From Mycobacterium sherrisii (lineage in GTDB: Bacteria; Actinomycetota; Actinomycetes; Mycobacteriales; Mycobacteriaceae): a stretch of DNA of 64,000 nt. The notes beneath the pieces are model-generated. The model worked only from the letters and a program-made list of their open reading frames with translations, searched no databases and was not told the DNA's origin. A program made the position numbers and the translations under genes. The DNA lies in the NCBI RefSeq assembly GCF_002102355.1, contig NZ_LQPT01000081.1:244086-308085 (forward strand), read 5' to 3'. This document shows, piece after piece, positions 9,228-16,830 of the stretch. How positions within the stretch are numbered: the stretch's first letter is position 1; each line of letters opens with the position of its first letter.

Positions 9228-10136
9228 GGCGCCGGCATCGATCCCCGGGTGGCCCTGGCCGCGGCGCCCCCGGGTTATCGGCTCAGCGTCGCCGAAAACA
9301 ATTGCGACATAGGGCGGTTCATCACCGAGAAGACCGCGGGCGTGCATGCCGCCGCCTCCGGCCGGTTCGAGCAAGCCAGTCAGCACCTGTCGGTGGCGCT
9401 GGCACAATGGCGGGGACCGGTACTCGAGGATCTGCGCGATTTCCAGTTCGTCGACAGCTTCGCCACCTCCTTGGTGGAGGAGAAAATCTTGGTCCACACC
9501 GCCAAGGCCGAGGCCGAAATCGCTTGCGGACGTGCCGCCACCGTGATCACCGAACTGGAAGCGCTGACCGCGGAGCACCCCTACCGGGAGCCGCTGTGGG
9601 CCCAGTTGATCACGGCCTACTACTTGACCGACCGCCAGTCCGACGCGCTGGCCGCCTACCGCCGGGTGAAAACGACCCTCGCCGAGGAACTGGGCATCGA
9701 TCCCGGCCCCACACTTCGCGACCTCAACGAACGGATCCTGCGTCAAGAGCCGCTGGACGCCAAGAAATCCGCGCGAACGACGGCCGTCGGAACCGTCACC
9801 CTGCTGGACCAACGCACCAAAGTGCCCATCGGAAAACCGCTCGCCTATCTGCGCGAACCGTCCGGCCGCAGCTACCCGCTGCGCGCGGCCGAGACCAGGA
9901 TCGGACGCCTCAGCGACAACGACATCATCCTGGCCAGCGCCAACGTGAGCCGCCATCACGCCGTCATCGTCGACACCGGCACCAGCTTCGTCATCAACGA
10001 CCTACGGTCCTCCAACGGAGTGCATGTGCAACACCAGCGGATCCGGTCTGCCGCCACCGTCAAAGACGGCGATCACATCCGGATCTGCGACCACGAATTC
10101 ATCTTCGAGATCCCCCACGACACTGACTCCAAATAG
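9228..10136 (+). pseudogene. embR: 5'-truncated embR: activation (BTAD) and FHA domains without DNA-binding domain
   Basis: Similarity to EmbR begins abruptly at GAGIDPRV (9228) and runs to the stop. It includes the bacterial transcriptional activation (BTAD) repeats (about 25-165 of the remaining ORF) and a C-terminal FHA domain with the phosphothreonine-binding residues in RIGRLSDND, NVSRHHAV and LRSSNGVHV. The ~90-residue OmpR-type winged helix that starts EmbR (388 aa) is absent; a TGA lies in frame at 9207-9209. The first usable start is GTG 9249, giving 295 aa. Known: M. tuberculosis EmbR is phosphorylated by PknH and activates embCAB. Without the DNA-binding domain this product could at most bind phosphorylated PknH. 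It may be a pseudogene or a decoy; codon usage still looks normal and there are no internal stops. Confidence 0.78.
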
Positions 10137-10327: not shown

Positions 10328-10372
10328 TGTTGATATGGTCGGCGGGTCCGCGGTTGGTTTGGAGGATCAACG
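10328..10372 (+). repeat. Leader copy 1: near-identical upstream block of the two kinase genes
   Basis: Bases 10328-10365 are identical to 14908-14945, then one mismatch (A versus G at 10366), then identity through the ATG into codon 3. The block contains TATGGT (10334-10339), a possible -10, and GGAGG about 7 bases before the ATG, so it can carry promoter and ribosome-binding site for both genes. Confidence 0.8.
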
Positions 10373-12178
10373 ATGAGCGACGCGCAGGACTCACGGGTGG
10401 GGGCGATGTTCGGCCCCTACCACCTGAAACGGCTGCTCGGACGCGGTGGCATGGGCGAGGTCTACGAGGCCGAACACACCGTCAAGGAGTGGACGGTCGC
10501 GGTCAAGGTGATGGCCACAGAATTCAGCAAGGACCCCGTCTTTCGGGAGCGGATGCGCCGTGAAGCGCGCACCGCCGGCCGTTTGCAGGAACCGCACGTC
10601 GTTCCCATCCACGACTACGGCGAAATCGACGGGCAGATGTTCATGGAGATGCACCTGATCGAGGGCATCGATCTGGACGACATGCTCAAAAGGTTCGGGC
10701 CGCTGGCGCCGCCCCGGGCGGTGGCCATCATCACCCAGATCGCCTCGGCCCTCGACGCCGCCCACGCCGCCGGCGTCATGCACCGTGACATCAAGCCACC
10801 CAACATCCTGATCACCCGCGACGACTTCGCCTACCTGGTCGATTTCGGCATCGCCAGCGCGACCACCGACGAGAAACTCACCCAGCTCGGCACCGCGGTG
10901 GGCACCTGGAAATACATGGCGCCCGAACGGTTTTCCAACGGCGAGGTGACCTACCGGGCCGACATCTACGCGCTGGCGTGCGTGCTGTACGAATGCCTGA
11001 CGGGCACGCCACCGTATCGCGCGAGCACCGCCGGTGAGTTGGTCAGGGCGCATACCAGCGACGCCATCCCGCGGGCCAGCGACGAGCGTTCGGGAATTCC
11101 CAAGGCCTTCGACGCGGTGATCGCGCGCGGCATGGCCAAGAAACCCGAGGACCGCTACGCCAGCGCCGGCGACCTCGCCCTGGCCGCGCACGAGGCCCTC
11201 AGCACGCCGGACCAAGACCACGCCGACAACATCTTGCGCCGCAGCCGCGAGGCCACCCTGGCCGCCGGCACCGCACTGGACCCGCCACCCACCGCGCCGG
11301 CCACGGCCCAGCCGCCGATCAATACGCCCCAGCCGCCGCGTCCGAGGCTAGGTCCGGTGGCACCGCACCACGCCCCCAGCCCGTGGCCGGGTGCCGGCTC
11401 GGGGGCGCCCGACAACGGCCCCGTCCCCGCCCCGGCCCAGCACGTCTCCCGCCCGCAGTACTACCAAGGCGGCGGCGGCAACTGGACCCCCACACCGCCG
11501 GGCGGTCCCGCGCACTGGGGCCCGACCCAGCAGCCCCGCACACCCAAACGCAATCCCTGGCCGATCGTGGTCGGGGTGTGCGCGCTGGTCATGGTCCTCG
11601 TGCTGGCCGTCGTCGGCATCTACATCGCGACGCAGCACGAGGACAACCCGGCACCGCAACCCACCGCCGCGCCGACAACCACGGTGACGCCCAAGACGTC
11701 CAGCGCGCCCAGCACTTCCAGCACGATTTCCACCCCGCCCGGGGACGTGGAAAGCCAGCTGCTGTCGATCGTGCCGCCGGGCTACCCGAGCGGCGTGTGC
11801 ACCCCGGCCACGCCCAAACCGAACAGCGTCTGGTCGGAGGCGTTGGCGATCGTGGACTGCGATCAGAACACCAACCCCGGCGGGCCGTCCAAGGCTCGCT
11901 ACGCCCTGTTCCCCAATCCGGCCGTTCTCAAAGACGCTTTCGATGCCGATGTCAAATTGCTGCAGATGGTGACGTGTCCCGGCGGAACCACGAATCCCGA
12001 ACCGTGGCAACATCCCAGCGCCCCCAAGGTGGACGTCGGGATGATTGCGTGCGGCACCTATGAAAACCACCCGAACATGGTCTGGAGCAATCAGCAACGG
12101 CTGCTGCTGTGCGACGTCTTCGGCGACCCCCCGACCATCGAGGAACTGCACACCTGGTGGACGAAGTACGGTGGTTGA
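10373..12178 (+). CDS. PknH-like Ser/Thr receptor kinase with a divergent extracellular domain
   Basis: 601 aa. The Hanks-type kinase domain (about 14-275) has GRGGMG (23-28), Lys45, HRD (137-139), DFG (157-159) and activation-loop Thr174/Thr178 in the GTAVGTWKYMAPE pattern of PknH. A Pro-rich juxtamembrane linker (about 300-390) follows, one membrane helix (about 394-421), and an extracellular domain of about 155 residues with five cysteines that does not resemble the PknH sensor of the sister kinase. The kinase halves of the two proteins are nearly identical, including 101 identical bases at 10820-10920 versus 15400-15500. The adjacent FHA-ABC gene is a plausible substrate, by analogy with PknF and Rv1747. 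Start ATG has GGAGG 7 bases upstream. Confidence 0.9.
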   Translation: MSDAQDSRVGAMFGPYHLKRLLGRGGMGEVYEAEHTVKEWTVAVKVMATEFSKDPVFRERMRREARTAGRLQEPHVVPIHDYGEIDGQMFMEMHLIEGIDLDDMLKRFGPLAPPRAVAIITQIASALDAAHAAGVMHRDIKPPNILITRDDFAYLVDFGIASATTDEKLTQLGTAVGTWKYMAPERFSNGEVTYRADIYALACVLYECLTGTPPYRASTAGELVRAHTSDAIPRASDERSGIPKAFDAVIARGMAKKPEDRYASAGDLALAAHEALSTPDQDHADNILRRSREATLAAGTALDPPPTAPATAQPPINTPQPPRPRLGPVAPHHAPSPWPGAGSGAPDNGPVPAPAQHVSRPQYYQGGGGNWTPTPPGGPAHWGPTQQPRTPKRNPWPIVVGVCALVMVLVLAVVGIYIATQHEDNPAPQPTAAPTTTVTPKTSSAPSTSSTISTPPGDVESQLLSIVPPGYPSGVCTPATPKPNSVWSEALAIVDCDQNTNPGGPSKARYALFPNPAVLKDAFDADVKLLQMVTCPGGTTNPEPWQHPSAPKVDVGMIACGTYENHPNMVWSNQQRLLLCDVFGDPPTIEELHTWWTKYGG

Positions 12179-12253
12179 CCTGAACCGCATCGCATGACGC
12201 TAAAGATCAACGAGCCCAACAACATTGGCTAGCTAACGCAGCGGAGGCTACCC

Positions 12254-14623
12254 GTGGACGACAGGACCGAATTGGTCACCACCATTCCCCGGCTGGAACT
12301 GCGGTCCGGTGCCCGCGCCTGGCAGGCCACCGGTAACAGGTCCTGGAACATCGGCCGCGCCTACGAGTCCGACATCCAACTGGAAAACCCCCGGGTGTCG
12401 CGCCACCACGCGGTGCTGCAACCGACGCCCGCGGGCTGGGTGCTGGTCAATCGCAGCCGCAACGGGATGTTCGTGAACGGCCGACGTGTCGAGAGCCTGA
12501 CGATCGACCGGCCCGTCACCGTGCGGCTCGGGTCGGCGTCGTCCGGGGCGGCGCTCGAGGTCTACCCGATCGCCCAACCGCCCGCCCCCGCGCGCACGCA
12601 AACCGTTGCGCCGCCGACCCAACCGGTCGGTGAGACGACGGTCGCCCGGCCACCGACCGCGGTGTACAACATGGGCCAGGTCGACATCCGGATCGGCCGC
12701 GCCACCGACAACCAAGTCGTCCTCGACGACCTCCTGGTCTCTCGGCAGCACGCGGTGTTGCGGCGCACCGGCCACCAATGGGAACTCGTCGACAACAACA
12801 GCGCCAACGGCACCTACGTCAACGGCAACCGGATCGTCCGAGCGCTCATCGGACCCAACGACATCGTCGGCATCGGCCACCAACTGCTGCACCTTTCCGG
12901 TGACCAGCTTGTCGAATACGTTGACACCGGCGACATCTCCTACGCGGCGTCCAACCTGCGGGTCGTCACCAACAAGGGCAAGACGTTACTCAGCGACGTC
13001 AGCTTCGCCCTGCCGCAGCGCTGCTTCATGGCGGTGGTGGGGCCGAGCGGCGCCGGGAAATCCACACTGCTGGGCGCGTTGACCGGCTTCAGCCCGGCCA
13101 GCAGCGGCGAGGTGCGCTACGACAATCGTGACCTCTACCAGAACTACGCCGAGCTCCGCCATCGCATCGGGTTCGTACCGCAGGACGACATCCTGCATAC
13201 GCCGCTGACCGTGCACAGGGCACTGAATTATGCTGCGCGGCTGCGGTTTCCACAGGAAGTCTCCGCCGCCGAGCGAAAGCAGCGCATCGACGAGGTGCTG
13301 ACCGAACTGGGGCTGGCGGCCCATGCCAATCAGCGAATCGACAGCCTGTCCGGCGGACAACGCAAACGGACCAGCGTGGCCCTGGAACTGTTGACCAAGC
13401 CCTCGCTGCTGTTCCTCGACGAACCCACCTCCGGCCTCGATCCCGGTTACGAGAAATCCGTCATGCAGACGCTGCGGGCGCTGGCCGACGACGGCCGCTC
13501 GGTCGTGGTGGTCACCCACAACACCGCGCAGCTGAACCTGTGCGACCGGCTGCTCATCCTGGCGCCGGGCGGGCGGCTGGCCTACTTCGGTCCGCCGCAG
13601 CAGGCCCTGGGCTACTTCAACTGCCGCGACTTTGCCGACCTGTTCAACCTGCTCGAGCACGACACCACCACCGACTGGACCGGCCGATACGTCGCCTCGC
13701 CGATCCACACCGCCCTCACCGGGCCTCACCCCGCGCTCAAAGCGCCGCGACCGGCGCCGCCGGCCAGCCGGCCGGTCGCCCAGCAGAGCGCGTTCGCCCA
13801 ATTCACCACGCTGTGCCGGCGGTACCTGGCGGTGATCGCCGCCGATCGTCAGTACTCGGTGACGCTGTTGGTGCTGCCGCTGCTGCTGAGCCTGTTCGCG
13901 CATGCCGTCCCGGGTCGCGCCGGGCTGTCACTGACCAAGGCCATCGAGACGAAGTCCACCCAGCCGTCGCAACTGCTGGTGCTGCTGATCATCGGCGGCG
14001 CACTGATGGGCTGCGCCGCCTCGATCCGCGAGATCGTCAAAGAACGGGCCATCTATCAACGCGAACACGGGATAGGGCGGTCCCGCGGCGCCTACCTGGC
14101 CTCCAAATTGGCGGTCCTCACCGCATTGACGACGCTGCAGGGCCTGATTCTCGGATTTCTTGGGGCGGTGGGTCTGCCCCCGCCGGATCAAGCCGTCGTG
14201 CTGCCCTGGCCCCGGGTCGAGGTGGCCGTCGCGGTCGTCGCCGTCACCGTGGTCTCGATGATGATCGGTCTGCTGATCTCGGCGGCGATCGGCAATGCCG
14301 ATCGCGGCATGCCGATGCTCGTGCTGGTGGTCATGGCCGAATTGGTGCTGTGCGGCGGCATGTTCGGGGTCAAGGGGCGCATCCCGCTGGAGCAGTTGGC
14401 GTGGTTGTCACCGTCGCGCTGGGCCTACGCGATGGCCGCCTCGACCATCGACCTCAACGATCTGCGCCGGACCGCGGGCGGCGACGAGGACCCGATCTGG
14501 GACTACGCACCGAGCAGCTGGTGGATGGCCGCGGGCGCATGCGGCGCCCAGGCGGTCGTGTTGGCGATCCTGATCGCGGCTCAACTCAAACAGCTTGACC
14601 CACAACGCAAATCGGGCAGGTGA
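12254..14623 (+). CDS. Two-FHA-domain ABC transporter (Rv1747-like)
   Basis: 789 aa. Two FHA domains (about 15-100 and 150-215), each with the Arg/Ser/Asn phosphothreonine-binding set (NIGRAYESD, RVSRHHAV, RSRNGMFVNG; RIGRATDNQ, LVSRQHAV, NSANGTYVNG), are separated by a Pro/Thr-rich linker. An ABCG-type NBD follows (about 230-460: Walker A GPSGAGKS, LSGGQRKR, Walker B LLFLDEPTSGLD, VVTHN), then an ABC2 membrane domain (about 530-785). Rv1747 (865 aa) has the same architecture, is phosphorylated in the linker by PknF and has been linked to export of cell-envelope glycolipid (known). Lying 75 bases after one PknH-like kinase and about 330 before another, it is probably phospho-regulated by them (inference). 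GTG start with GCGGAGG 6 bases upstream. Confidence 0.92.
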   Translation: MDDRTELVTTIPRLELRSGARAWQATGNRSWNIGRAYESDIQLENPRVSRHHAVLQPTPAGWVLVNRSRNGMFVNGRRVESLTIDRPVTVRLGSASSGAALEVYPIAQPPAPARTQTVAPPTQPVGETTVARPPTAVYNMGQVDIRIGRATDNQVVLDDLLVSRQHAVLRRTGHQWELVDNNSANGTYVNGNRIVRALIGPNDIVGIGHQLLHLSGDQLVEYVDTGDISYAASNLRVVTNKGKTLLSDVSFALPQRCFMAVVGPSGAGKSTLLGALTGFSPASSGEVRYDNRDLYQNYAELRHRIGFVPQDDILHTPLTVHRALNYAARLRFPQEVSAAERKQRIDEVLTELGLAAHANQRIDSLSGGQRKRTSVALELLTKPSLLFLDEPTSGLDPGYEKSVMQTLRALADDGRSVVVVTHNTAQLNLCDRLLILAPGGRLAYFGPPQQALGYFNCRDFADLFNLLEHDTTTDWTGRYVASPIHTALTGPHPALKAPRPAPPASRPVAQQSAFAQFTTLCRRYLAVIAADRQYSVTLLVLPLLLSLFAHAVPGRAGLSLTKAIETKSTQPSQLLVLLIIGGALMGCAASIREIVKERAIYQREHGIGRSRGAYLASKLAVLTALTTLQGLILGFLGAVGLPPPDQAVVLPWPRVEVAVAVVAVTVVSMMIGLLISAAIGNADRGMPMLVLVVMAELVLCGGMFGVKGRIPLEQLAWLSPSRWAYAMAASTIDLNDLRRTAGGDEDPIWDYAPSSWWMAAGACGAQAVVLAILIAAQLKQLDPQRKSGR

Positions 14624-14907
14624 GGGGCGCTGTGGGTGTTTGGCGACCAACGGCAGCACGCTGACCGCCCACCGCCCGAACGTCACCTGAACCGACAGCA
14701 TTCGGTAGCCGACGTAATAGACCCCGTACGAGCACATCCGCGCGGTCCCGGCAGTGGTGGGCATTGAGAGTCCCTGCGCTGGCATGGCTTGCCCTATCCT
14801 TGATGAATCCTTGGACGCAACCGACATTCGGGGCCGCCGATGTTTGCCGTGATCGAATGAATGGGCGGGCGCGCAGCCATGGCCGTCGGGGGGTTTCGCC
14901 GGCGGGA
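14624..14907. other. Gene-free stretch before the second kinase
   Basis: About 280 bases after the transporter stop with no supported gene; open frames on the minus strand here simply run on from the antisense of the transporter. A TATCCT at 14795-14800 could be a -10 but has no clear -35. Together with the leader copy at 14908 this makes a gap of about 330 bases. Confidence 0.45.
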
Positions 14908-14952
14908 TGTTGATATGGTCGGCGGGTCCGCGGTTGGTTTGGAGGGTCAACG
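14908..14952 (+). repeat. Leader copy 2: near-identical upstream block of the two kinase genes
   Basis: Identical to 10328-10372 except for one base (G at 14946). It carries the same TATGGT at 14914-14919 and GGAGG ribosome-binding site, at the same distance from the ATG at 14953. Confidence 0.8.
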
Positions 14953-16830
14953 ATGAGCGACGAGCAGGCCTCACGGGCGGGGTCGACATTCGGGCCCTAC
15001 CACCTAAAACGGCTGCTCGGGCGTGGCGGAATGGGCGAGGTTTACGAGGCCGAACACACCGTCAAGGAGTGGACGGTCGCGGTCAAGCTGATGTCGGACC
15101 AGTCCAGCGCGGACCCGGTGTTCCGGGAGCGGATGAAGCGCGAAGCGCGCACCGCGGGCCGTTTGCAGGAACCGCACGTCGTTCCGATCCACGACTACGG
15201 CGAGATCGACGGAAAAATGTTCATGGAGATGCGCCTCGTCGAGGGCACCGACCTGGACAGCCTGCTGAAACGGTATGGCCCGCTGACGCCGCCGCGCGCG
15301 GTGGCCATCATCACCCAGATCGCCTCGGCCCTCGACGCCGCCCACGCCGCCGGCGTCATGCATCGTGATGTCAAGCCGCCCAACATCTTGGTCACCCGTG
15401 ACGACTTCGCCTACCTGGTCGATTTCGGCATCGCCAGCGCGACCACCGACGAGAAACTCACCCAGCTCGGCACCGCGGTGGGCACCTGGAAATACATGGC
15501 CCCGGAGCGGTTCACCAACGCCGAGGTGACCTACCGGGCCGACATCTACGCGCTGGCGTGCGTATTGCACGAATGCCTGACCGGTGCGGCCCCGTATCGC
15601 GCGGACAGCGCCGGCGTGCTGGTCCGGGCCCACATGAACGACCCGATTCCGCAGCCCAGCGCGGTACGGACCGGCATTCCTAAGACGTTCGACGCGGTGA
15701 TCGCGCGCGGCATGGCCAAAAAACCCGCGGAGCGCTACGCCAGCGCCGGCGACCTGGCGCTGGCCGCACACGAGGCGCTGAGCACCCCGGATCAAGACCA
15801 CGCCTCCGACATCCTGCGCCGCAGCCAGGAAGCCACCCTGCCCGGCGATCCGAAACTCGTCCAACCGCCGACGGTCGCGGGCACCCAGGCGGCTCCGCCG
15901 CCGCCGCGGGTGAACACGCCGCCGACCCCCTATCCGCGCCCAGGACCGAGTGCCGCGCCGGCCGCAGCACACCATCCACCGAGCCCCCGGCCCTGGGCGC
16001 CCGAGAGCGGGCCCGTGCCGACCCCGGCCCCGGCGTATTTCCAAGGCGGCGGCGGTAATTGGGGTGGCCCGCCCCCGGGCACTCTGCCGCCGGTCCAGCC
16101 GGTCGGACACCCACCGTGGGGAGTGGGACAGCCGCCCAAACCCAAGCGCAATCCCTGGCCGATCATCGCCGCGGTCGCGGTGGTGGTGGTCGTCGTCGTC
16201 AGCGCCGTAGCGATTTGGCTGATCATCCCCGACCCCAAGCCGCCACCCGACCCGGTCGCGGCCACCCAGCTGAACTCCTTGCTGCTGAGCCCCTCGGAGA
16301 TCAACGCGATCATGGGCGCGACGAACATCCAGCCCGGCAAGCCGATCACGTCGATGGGTACCGCGTCGATGACGGTGTCGATCCCGGACTGTCAGGGCGC
16401 GCTGTACACGACCCAGGACCGGGTGTATGCCGGGAGCGGCTACACCGGGATCAACGGGTTGGTGTCGTCGGAACCGGGTGACAACAACGACCACTGGGTC
16501 AACCAGGCGGTGGTGGCCTATCCGACCGCCGACAAGGCCGAGGCGTTTCTACAAAGCGAAGCCGGCAAATGGAAAAGCTGTGCCGGACAGACGGTGACGG
16601 TGACGAACTCGAGCAACAAGACCTATCGGTGGACTTTCGCCCAAATTCAGGGCAGCCCACCGAAGATCTCGGTGCTGCAGACGCAGGAAGGCGCCGACGG
16701 GTGGGAGTGCGAGCACGCGATGGGCGTGGCGAACAACGTGGTGGTCGACATCAACGCGTGCGGGTACCACATCAGCGACCAAGCCGGCCAGATCGCCGAC
16801 AAGATCGTCGAGAAGATCAACGACATCTAG
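14953..16830 (+). CDS. pknH: Ser/Thr protein kinase PknH
   Basis: 625 aa, matching PknH of M. tuberculosis in size and architecture. Kinase domain (about 14-275) with Lys45, HRD 137-139, DFG 157-159 and activation-loop Thr174/Thr178; Pro-rich linker (about 300-395); membrane helix (about 400-427); then a PknH-type sensor domain with four conserved cysteines (PDCQGA, KSCAGQ, WECEHA, NACGYH), which form two disulfides in the known PknH sensor structure. The fold is thought to bind a small extracellular ligand. In M. tuberculosis PknH phosphorylates EmbR and DosR; here embR, which adjoins pknH there, is truncated and separated from it by another kinase and a transporter. No overlap with neighbours; abmR lies convergently downstream. 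Confidence 0.93.
   Translation: MSDEQASRAGSTFGPYHLKRLLGRGGMGEVYEAEHTVKEWTVAVKLMSDQSSADPVFRERMKREARTAGRLQEPHVVPIHDYGEIDGKMFMEMRLVEGTDLDSLLKRYGPLTPPRAVAIITQIASALDAAHAAGVMHRDVKPPNILVTRDDFAYLVDFGIASATTDEKLTQLGTAVGTWKYMAPERFTNAEVTYRADIYALACVLHECLTGAAPYRADSAGVLVRAHMNDPIPQPSAVRTGIPKTFDAVIARGMAKKPAERYASAGDLALAAHEALSTPDQDHASDILRRSQEATLPGDPKLVQPPTVAGTQAAPPPPRVNTPPTPYPRPGPSAAPAAAHHPPSPRPWAPESGPVPTPAPAYFQGGGGNWGGPPPGTLPPVQPVGHPPWGVGQPPKPKRNPWPIIAAVAVVVVVVVSAVAIWLIIPDPKPPPDPVAATQLNSLLLSPSEINAIMGATNIQPGKPITSMGTASMTVSIPDCQGALYTTQDRVYAGSGYTGINGLVSSEPGDNNDHWVNQAVVAYPTADKAEAFLQSEAGKWKSCAGQTVTVTNSSNKTYRWTFAQIQGSPPKISVLQTQEGADGWECEHAMGVANNVVVDINACGYHISDQAGQIADKIVEKINDI

What the first reader, a model, noticed from the sequence alone, without database searches (positions are those of the whole stretch)
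10328..16830. Kinase - FHA/ABC transporter - kinase cassette with duplicated, near-identical kinase halves and leaders
Two PknH-like receptor kinases flank a transporter carrying two FHA domains. The kinase domains share 101 consecutive identical bases (10820-10920 versus 15400-15500) and another run of over 60, including silent positions, and a 45-base leader with a single mismatch (10328-10372 versus 14908-14952). Their extracellular domains, by contrast, are unrelated: one is a four-cysteine PknH sensor, the other a five-cysteine domain I do not recognise. This looks like duplication or ongoing gene conversion keeping the intracellular output identical while the inputs diverge, with the phospho-reading transporter as shared target. 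PknF-Rv1747 is the known two-gene analogue; a two-sensor, one-transporter arrangement is not something I know as described.
Basis: partly seen in the sequence, partly recalled or inferred. Interest (0 to 1): 0.72.

Follow-up and report, generated by a model that had tools for sequence, protein, structure and literature searches.

The report
Mycobacterial PknH kinase–transporter locus (RD900-type)
This is another mycobacterium's copy of an already described locus in which two sensor kinases with similar engines but different antennae flank one transporter; comparison across species adds evidence that the two kinase halves have repeatedly been copied over each other.

Summary
In detail: two co-directional PknH-type receptor kinases flank an ABC transporter with two FHA domains, with 101- and 65-base identical runs and a 45-base leader with one mismatch. 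The arrangement is not new. It is the locus published as RD900 (pknH1, tbd2/maf1, pknH2, beside embR), with recombination between the kinases and a proposed PknH–transporter link already in print (PMC3289620, PMC5386241, PMC7785237). The gene-conversion reading holds across the genus; the words do not occur in the two RD900 papers I searched for them. Over 23 genomes, K1 and K2 of one genome agree at 78.5% of third positions against 69.8% between genomes (0 of 20,000 permutations as high), and the tree rejects K1 as one clade (AU p = 2.5e-05). In this window's clade the effect is weaker: the last whole-domain homogenisation is older than the clade, only short tracts look recent, and 16 amino-acid differences between K1 and K2 are fixed in 8 of 8 genomes. 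So outputs are related, not kept identical. That the transporter is the shared target is plausible and untested. The neighbouring embR lacks its DNA-binding end here.

The parts
9249..10136 (+). embR-like gene lacking its N-terminal DNA-binding part: BTAD and FHA remain
   Evidence: Residues 2-291 match PDB 2fez (embR, 388 residues) at 93-383, 2e-153; Pfam BTAD 2.2e-48 and FHA 3.9e-17; an in-frame stop lies about 14 codons upstream of the GTG; that 2fez's missing part is the DNA-binding domain is recalled.
10328..10372 (+). leader of K1: TATGGT at 10334-10339 (fits a mycobacterial -10 TANNNT, recalled) and a GGAGG ribosome-binding stretch
   Evidence: 1 of 45 mismatches to the K2 leader; the core TTGxTAnnnY is found before 26 of 26 K1, 24 of 26 K2 and 4 of 11 K1b genes.
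10373..12178 (+). K1, PknH-type receptor kinase beside embR (by position and sensor the published pknH2; inferred)
   Evidence: Pkinase 2.6e-46; 601 aa.
10373..11197 (+). K1 kinase domain, codons 1-275 (gap-free with K2)
   Evidence: catalytic K45, D139, D157 invariant in all 63 kinase domains compared (residue roles recalled).
10820..10920 (+). 101-base tract identical to 15400-15500 (activation segment)
   Evidence: includes one silent state seen in none of the other 14 kinase genes of the clade.
11708..12178 (+). K1 sensor domain (S1), four invariant cysteines, no Pfam or PDB match
12254..14623 (+). FHA-FHA-ABC transporter (Tbd2/Maf1 type)
   Evidence: Pfam FHA in 2 stretches 4.6e-34, ABC_tran 5.8e-31, ABC2_membrane 8.3e-17; 32 of 248 genus genomes, this one included, list a match at 70% identity or more.
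12635..12664 (+). Thr motif TTVARPPTAV in the FHA1-FHA2 linker (T128, T129, T135): candidate phospho-sites
   Evidence: Of 28 aligned transporters, 23 keep TT followed by V or I; the last Thr is Thr in 27 and Ser in 1 (read by eye); the rest of the linker is variable. Phosphorylation is inferred.
14908..14952 (+). leader of K2
14953..16830 (+). K2, PknH-type receptor kinase with PknH_C sensor (by sensor the published pknH1; inferred)
   Evidence: Pkinase 7.6e-44, PknH_C 1.1e-61.
15400..15500 (+). partner of the 101-base identical tract
16255..16815 (+). PknH_C sensor of K2
   Evidence: Pfam, residues 435-621; PDB 4esq 6.4e-92, listed only as a Ser/Thr protein kinase (that it is the PknH sensor is recalled).

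Best explanation
This is an orthologue of the RD900 locus, in the order embR, K1 (pknH2), tbd2, K2 (pknH1). Two membrane kinases with unrelated outside sensors and a related inside kinase would phosphorylate FHA partners encoded beside them: the transporter, whose linker threonines and two FHA domains would dock the active kinase, and EmbR. The two kinase halves and leaders are direct repeats 4,580 bases apart. Recombination between them has two outcomes: conversion, which homogenises the halves, and crossover, which deletes the transporter and leaves one chimeric pknH. Shown here: the shared gene order, sensors that stay with gene position while kinase halves do not, repeated homogenisation over the genus, and a chimera in a relative. 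Inferred: phosphorylation, docking, transport direction and cargo. In this clade the kinases have also come to differ in fixed residues, so their outputs probably overlap without being the same.
For: Gene order: in the 23 loci with both kinases, embR precedes K1, S1 follows K1 and transporter sequence lies between the kinases in 23 of 23 (interrupted in L077 and L084); S2 follows K2 in 22 (not found in L069). K1-K2 third-position identity: same genome 0.785, different genomes 0.698, 0 of 20,000 permutations as high; with the third kinase K1b the gap is much smaller, 0.681/0.664 (10 genomes) and 0.691/0.669 (9 genomes). Tree of 46 kinase domains: 8 label changes, 8 forced by starred branches; K1 as one clade rejected, AU p 2.5e-05. 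K1 and K2 of one genome are sisters in 5 of 23: L064, L074, L015, L076, L079; three of these genomes are on 1 contig (G029, G026, G105), which speaks against assembly artefact. Shared private states: window clade 11 in 8 same-genome pairs versus 19 in 56 cross pairs, 272 of 100,000 permutations as high; all 23 genomes 27 in 23 versus 28 in 506. Collapse: L087 has a K1-like leader (by eye) and a K1-type kinase (37 of 44 diagnostic sites, 7 K2-type) followed by the PknH_C sensor. Literature: RD900 structure and recombination (PMC3289620 section 15 read; PMC7785237 passages).
Against: In this clade K1 and K2 each form a clade (100/99), so there was no recent whole-domain conversion. Run test: 8 of 23 pairs have p under 0.05 and only 3 (L076, L079, L081) survive correction for 23; the window's 101-base run (p 0.0175) does not. 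A genome's own K2 is the best match of its K1 in only 11 of 23. The K1b controls also show a small same-genome excess that permutation calls significant (41 and 29 of 20,000), so part of the K1-K2 gap may be genome-wide. The window's 4 shared private states fall to 2 when all 23 genomes are counted. Residue 206 stays Tyr in 20 of 23 K1 and His in 19 of 23 K2, so homogenisation is not complete. Direction K1 to K2 rests on one diagnostic site in the tract. The transporter is absent in many genomes that keep a kinase, so it is not the kinases' only target. No tool here tests phosphorylation, and the M. africanum sequence was not compared.
Confidence: 0.85

Rival explanations
1. Plain old duplication plus strong constraint: the kinase halves look alike because the activation segment and codon usage are conserved, without conversion.
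For: The 101-base tract is the activation segment; cross-genome K1-K2 third-position identity is also high there (0.764 over codons 136-175 against 0.698 overall). K1 and K2 group separately in this clade. K1b controls show a small same-genome excess too.
Against: Constraint predicts no difference between same-genome and cross-genome K1-K2 pairs; the gap is 8.7 points, against 1.7 for K1-K1b and 2.2 for K1b-K2. It does not explain K1/K2 sisters in 5 genomes or the AU test.
Confidence: 0.07
2. The kinase pair arose anew by duplication in several lineages, or sensors were swapped between kinases, rather than halves being converted.
For: K1/K2 sister pairs in 5 genomes; a second transporter copy, or pieces of one, in 5 loci (L070, L080, L081, L082, L084), so the region does expand.
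Against: The order embR-K1(S1)-ABC-K2(S2) recurs in the 23 loci, S2 being unfound only in L069. Repeated new duplication would have to recreate the same order and sensors. A swap of 3' halves is formally the same event as conversion of 5' halves.
Confidence: 0.06
3. The kinases serve EmbR and other partners; the transporter is a bystander held there by history.
For: Of 20 embR regions from genomes without a transporter match at 70%, 18 show a kinase after embR. PknH-EmbR is the documented pair (PMC7785237 passages).
Against: Of 27 fetched transporter loci, 21 have these kinases on both sides, 5 are cut by contig ends and 1 (L072) has other kinases at 53%. The linker keeps a Thr motif.
Confidence: 0.25

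Closest known systems
RD900 locus (pknH1, tbd2/maf1, pknH2) of M. africanum, M. canettii and other mycobacteria
   Same: Two co-directional PknH kinases with like kinase halves and different sensors flanking an FHA-ABC transporter, beside embR; recombination between the kinases leaves one pknH.
   Different: Another species; here the kinase halves are 85% alike in amino acids, embR is truncated, and conversion is measured over 23 genomes. 'Gene conversion' does not occur in the main text of the two RD900 papers searched.
PknF-Rv1747 of M. tuberculosis
   Same: Receptor kinase beside a two-FHA ABC transporter; the FHA regions match Rv1747 structures 6cah (8.2e-14) and 6ccd (3.2e-06).
   Different: The window's genome has a further transporter of this kind at 42% identity on another contig, so this one is probably a paralogue. 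Two kinases flank it; the best PDB match of K2's kinase part is PknE (2h34).
PknH-EmbR
   Same: K2 sensor matches PDB 4esq and the gene upstream matches embR structure 2fez.
   Different: Two kinases instead of one, and EmbR without its N-terminal part.

Membership tests
RD900-type locus | two co-directional kinases with homologous kinase halves and different sensors flank an FHA-ABC gene | tested here: met
RD900-type locus | embR next to the upstream kinase | tested here: met
   2fez match at 9249-10136; truncated
RD900-type locus | one kinase carries the PknH_C sensor | tested here: met
   K2, 1.1e-61
RD900-type locus | relatives hold a single chimeric pknH made by recombination | tested here: met
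   L087: K1-like leader, K1-type kinase (37 of 44 sites), PknH_C sensor; one locus tested, and its frame is interrupted
RD900-type locus | direct sequence orthology with M. africanum MAF12850-MAF12880 | not tested
   that record was not looked up; no named collection searched here listed it
PknF-Rv1747 pair | transporter is the Rv1747 orthologue | tested here: inconclusive
   two-FHA ABC architecture met, but a separate 42% paralogue exists in the genome; no tree with Rv1747 itself
PknF-Rv1747 pair | kinase phosphorylates the transporter through FHA domains | not testable with these tools
   needs protein assays

The most novel reading that the evidence does not exclude
The direct-repeat kinase halves act as a recombination-kept common output module: conversion keeps two inputs on one output and crossover deletes the transporter plus one input, so that lineages repeatedly switch between two-input and one-input wiring, as an evolved trait and not just as drift.
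Probability: 0.15. Interest if true: 0.6.

Novelty: new member of a known kind. Interest (0 to 1): 0.38.

Why it matters
RD900 loss varies between tuberculosis-complex lineages, and pknH is linked to virulence in print (PMC7785237 abstract). Showing that the kinase halves have been homogenised repeatedly over the genus gives a measured recombination background against which any selective reading of RD900 loss must be judged. The window's clade, where silent sites are partly homogenised while 16 residues stay different, offers candidate specificity residues that can be tested directly.

Tried and rejected
Whole-domain recent conversion in this window: rejected by the separate K1 and K2 clades. 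Long-run test on the window pair alone: too weak after correction. A relation between the two sensors: none by profile comparison. Known fold for the K1 sensor by sequence: no PDB match with one sequence or with the profile. A known family for the K1 sensor: no Pfam match listed at max E 5; relatives occur as two stand-alone proteins in the same genome. The leader as a genome-wide element: only two copies. Published gene conversion in pknH: the search on pknH + 'gene conversion' + mycobacteri listed 3 papers, and none of the passages read ties the two. Further paper searches: pknH2, RD900/tbd2, Rv1747/PknF, pknH1, kinase evolution. Rows left out of the 23-genome K1/K2 counts: L010-L013 (the same loci as L063, L062, L059, L075), L014, L016, L017, L067, L071, L073, L078, L083, L085 (a kinase missing or contig cut), L072 (kinases at 53%) and L018-L020 (not this locus); six of these (L017, L067, L071, L073, L078, L085) are in the set of 63 domains. 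L079's middle kinase was left out of the K1b set. The transporter tree has 22 of the 23 (L084 left out). Transporter loci not fetched: G007, G015, G057, G091.
Full report
Observation. K1 is 10373-12178, the transporter 12254-14623 and K2 14953-16830, all on +. Identical runs of 30 or more at offset 4580 are 38, 45, 65, 101, 42 and 32 bases, and the leader differs at 1 of 45 positions while the 45 bases before it differ at 32. Over 275 codons the kinase domains agree at 86.8% of bases, 78.5% of third positions and 85.1% of amino acids. K2 has the PknH_C sensor (PDB 4esq 6.4e-92). The K1 sensor has no Pfam or PDB match and four cysteines invariant in 12 aligned sequences. The two sensor profiles are unrelated.

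What it is. The gene upstream is embR-like (PDB 2fez, 2e-153). The order embR, kinase, FHA/ABC, kinase with PknH_C is the RD900 locus. PMC3289620 (section 15 read) describes two like, co-directional kinases flanking the transporter maf1, the high identity of their first two thirds, divergence after that, repeated deletion by recombination, and the locus in M. canettii, M. marinum (with an extra pknH3) and M. kansasii. PMC7785237 (abstract and passages) states that the kinase domains are alike and the sensor domains different, follows the locus in 60 isolates, and suggests that Tbd2 could be phosphorylated by PknH. PMC5386241 (passages) proposed the same in 2017 and compares it with PknF-Rv1747. 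So the two-sensor, one-transporter arrangement and the target hypothesis are in print. That K1 is pknH2 and K2 is pknH1 is my inference from position and sensor.

Survey. I fetched 27 of the other 31 loci with flanks and had named loci, among them M. montefiorense, M. ahvazicum and M. triplex (86-87%) and Mycobacterium sp. 1100029.7 (89%). Of the 27, 21 have these kinases on both sides of the transporter, 5 are cut by contig ends and 1 (L072) has other kinases. Many have a third kinase, K1b, between K1 and the transporter, mostly with an S1-like sensor at 35-40%, and five loci have a second transporter copy or pieces of one (L070, L080, L081, L082, L084). Of 20 embR regions from genomes without such a transporter match, 7 have a kinase with the PknH_C sensor, 4 one with S1, 2 have a K1b-like kinase plus K2, 1 has transporter fragments, 1 has no kinase hit in the stretch and 5 are cut by contig ends (4 of these 5 still show a kinase). 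L087 combines a K1-like leader and a K1-type kinase (37 of 44 diagnostic sites; the 7 others K2-type, three of them in a row) with the PknH_C sensor, as expected from crossover between the repeats; its frame is interrupted.

Gene conversion. 23 genomes have both K1 and K2. Third-position identity is 0.785 within genomes and 0.698 between them; 0 of 20,000 permutations reach the first value. Each of 16 windows of 40 codons shows the gap (0 of 5,000 each). With K1b the gap is 0.681/0.664 (10 genomes) and 0.691/0.669 (9 genomes); these small gaps are themselves beyond most permutations (41 and 29 of 20,000), so a part of the K1-K2 gap may be genome-wide or K1b may convert a little. A genome's own K2 is the best match of its K1 in 11 of 23, and the fraction of matching polymorphic third positions runs from 0.63 (L065) to 0.95 (L064): far from uniform. 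In the run test 8 of 23 pairs have p under 0.05 and 3 (L076, L079, L081) survive correction. In the IQ-TREE of 46 domains the K1/K2 label changes 8 times, 8 being forced by starred branches; K1 as one clade is rejected (log-likelihood 338 lower, AU p 2.5e-05). K1 and K2 of one genome are sisters in L064, L074, L015, L076 and L079. Together with the window's clade of 8 and the clade L080-L082, I read this as about seven homogenisations. Shared private states over all 23 genomes: 27 in 23 same-genome pairs, 28 in 506 cross pairs. The transporter tree (22 rows) recovers the window's clade of 8 (100/98).

The window itself. Within its clade K1 and K2 each form a clade (100/99), so the last whole-domain event is older. 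After it, same-genome pairs share 11 private states in 8 pairs, against 19 in 56 cross pairs (272 of 100,000 permutations as high). The window has 4 of them, all at third positions (bases 231, 351, 489 and 585 of the gene), one inside the 101-base tract; 2 remain private when all 23 genomes are counted. The tract alone gives p 0.0175 for its pair, not significant over 23 pairs. K1-to-K2 direction is suggested by one diagnostic site (base 504). Against 'identical output', 16 residues are fixed differently between K1 and K2 in 8 of 8 genomes; none of these separates K1 from K2 at the 80% level in the other 15, where residues 3 and 270 do, and residue 206 (Tyr in 20 of 23 K1, His in 19 of 23 K2) does so over all. 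Silent sites are partly shared while such residues stay apart; short tracts with selection on residues would do this (inference).

Mechanism. K45, D139, D157 and T170 are invariant in all 63 kinase domains compared, so both kinases look active. The transporter keeps both FHA domains (loop residues, their role recalled) and a linker motif in front of FHA2: TT with V or I in 23 of 28 rows, and the last Thr is Thr in 27 of 28 and Ser in one (L075) (read by eye). In PknF-Rv1747, phosphorylation lowers the concentration at which the FHA-linker part condenses, and PstP reverses it (a review, PMC9312465, passages). The same logic is likely here: sensor binding, dimerisation, autophosphorylation, docking on FHA, linker phosphorylation, transporter activation. 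Every step of that is inferred. [quoted passage not shown] cargo here is unknown. The leaders carry a TANNNT box that ends 33 bases before the ATG of K1 and a GGAGG stretch; the core pattern is found before 26 of 26 K1, 24 of 26 K2 and 4 of 11 K1b genes, so each main kinase probably has its own promoter (inference).

Verdict. Confirmed observation, known arrangement, partly supported interpretation. The added result is repeated homogenisation of the kinase halves over the genus.

Noticed in passing
window 9228-10136: embR here lacks what corresponds to residues 1-81 of the nearest relative's EmbR (L059); no match to that part was found in the first 20 kb of the window. In L077 the open frame before the same point is also short (39 codons), against 90 to 333 in the six others looked at.
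   Followed up: partly
L086 1556-2290 and 2308-2952 (G000:C72): Two adjacent stand-alone proteins of the window's genome, without a kinase, carry an S1-like sensor domain (27-31% identity).
   Followed up: partly
L066, L068, L069, L075, L080, L081, L073, L015, L017 (and L065, without an S1 hit): A third kinase, mostly with an S1-like sensor, sits between K1 and the transporter and groups apart from K1/K2; its same-genome excess is small but not nil.
   Followed up: partly
L070, L080, L081, L082, L084: The FHA-ABC transporter is present in two tandem copies, or as several fragments in L084.
   Followed up: no
L088, L089, L090, L093: Genomes without the transporter match that show embR and only the S1-type kinase in the stretch (L093 is cut by its contig), the opposite outcome to the RD900 collapse.
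   Followed up: no
window K1 and K2, residue 206: Tyr in 20 of 23 K1 and His in 19 of 23 K2: a paralogue-specific residue that persists in spite of conversion.
   Followed up: no
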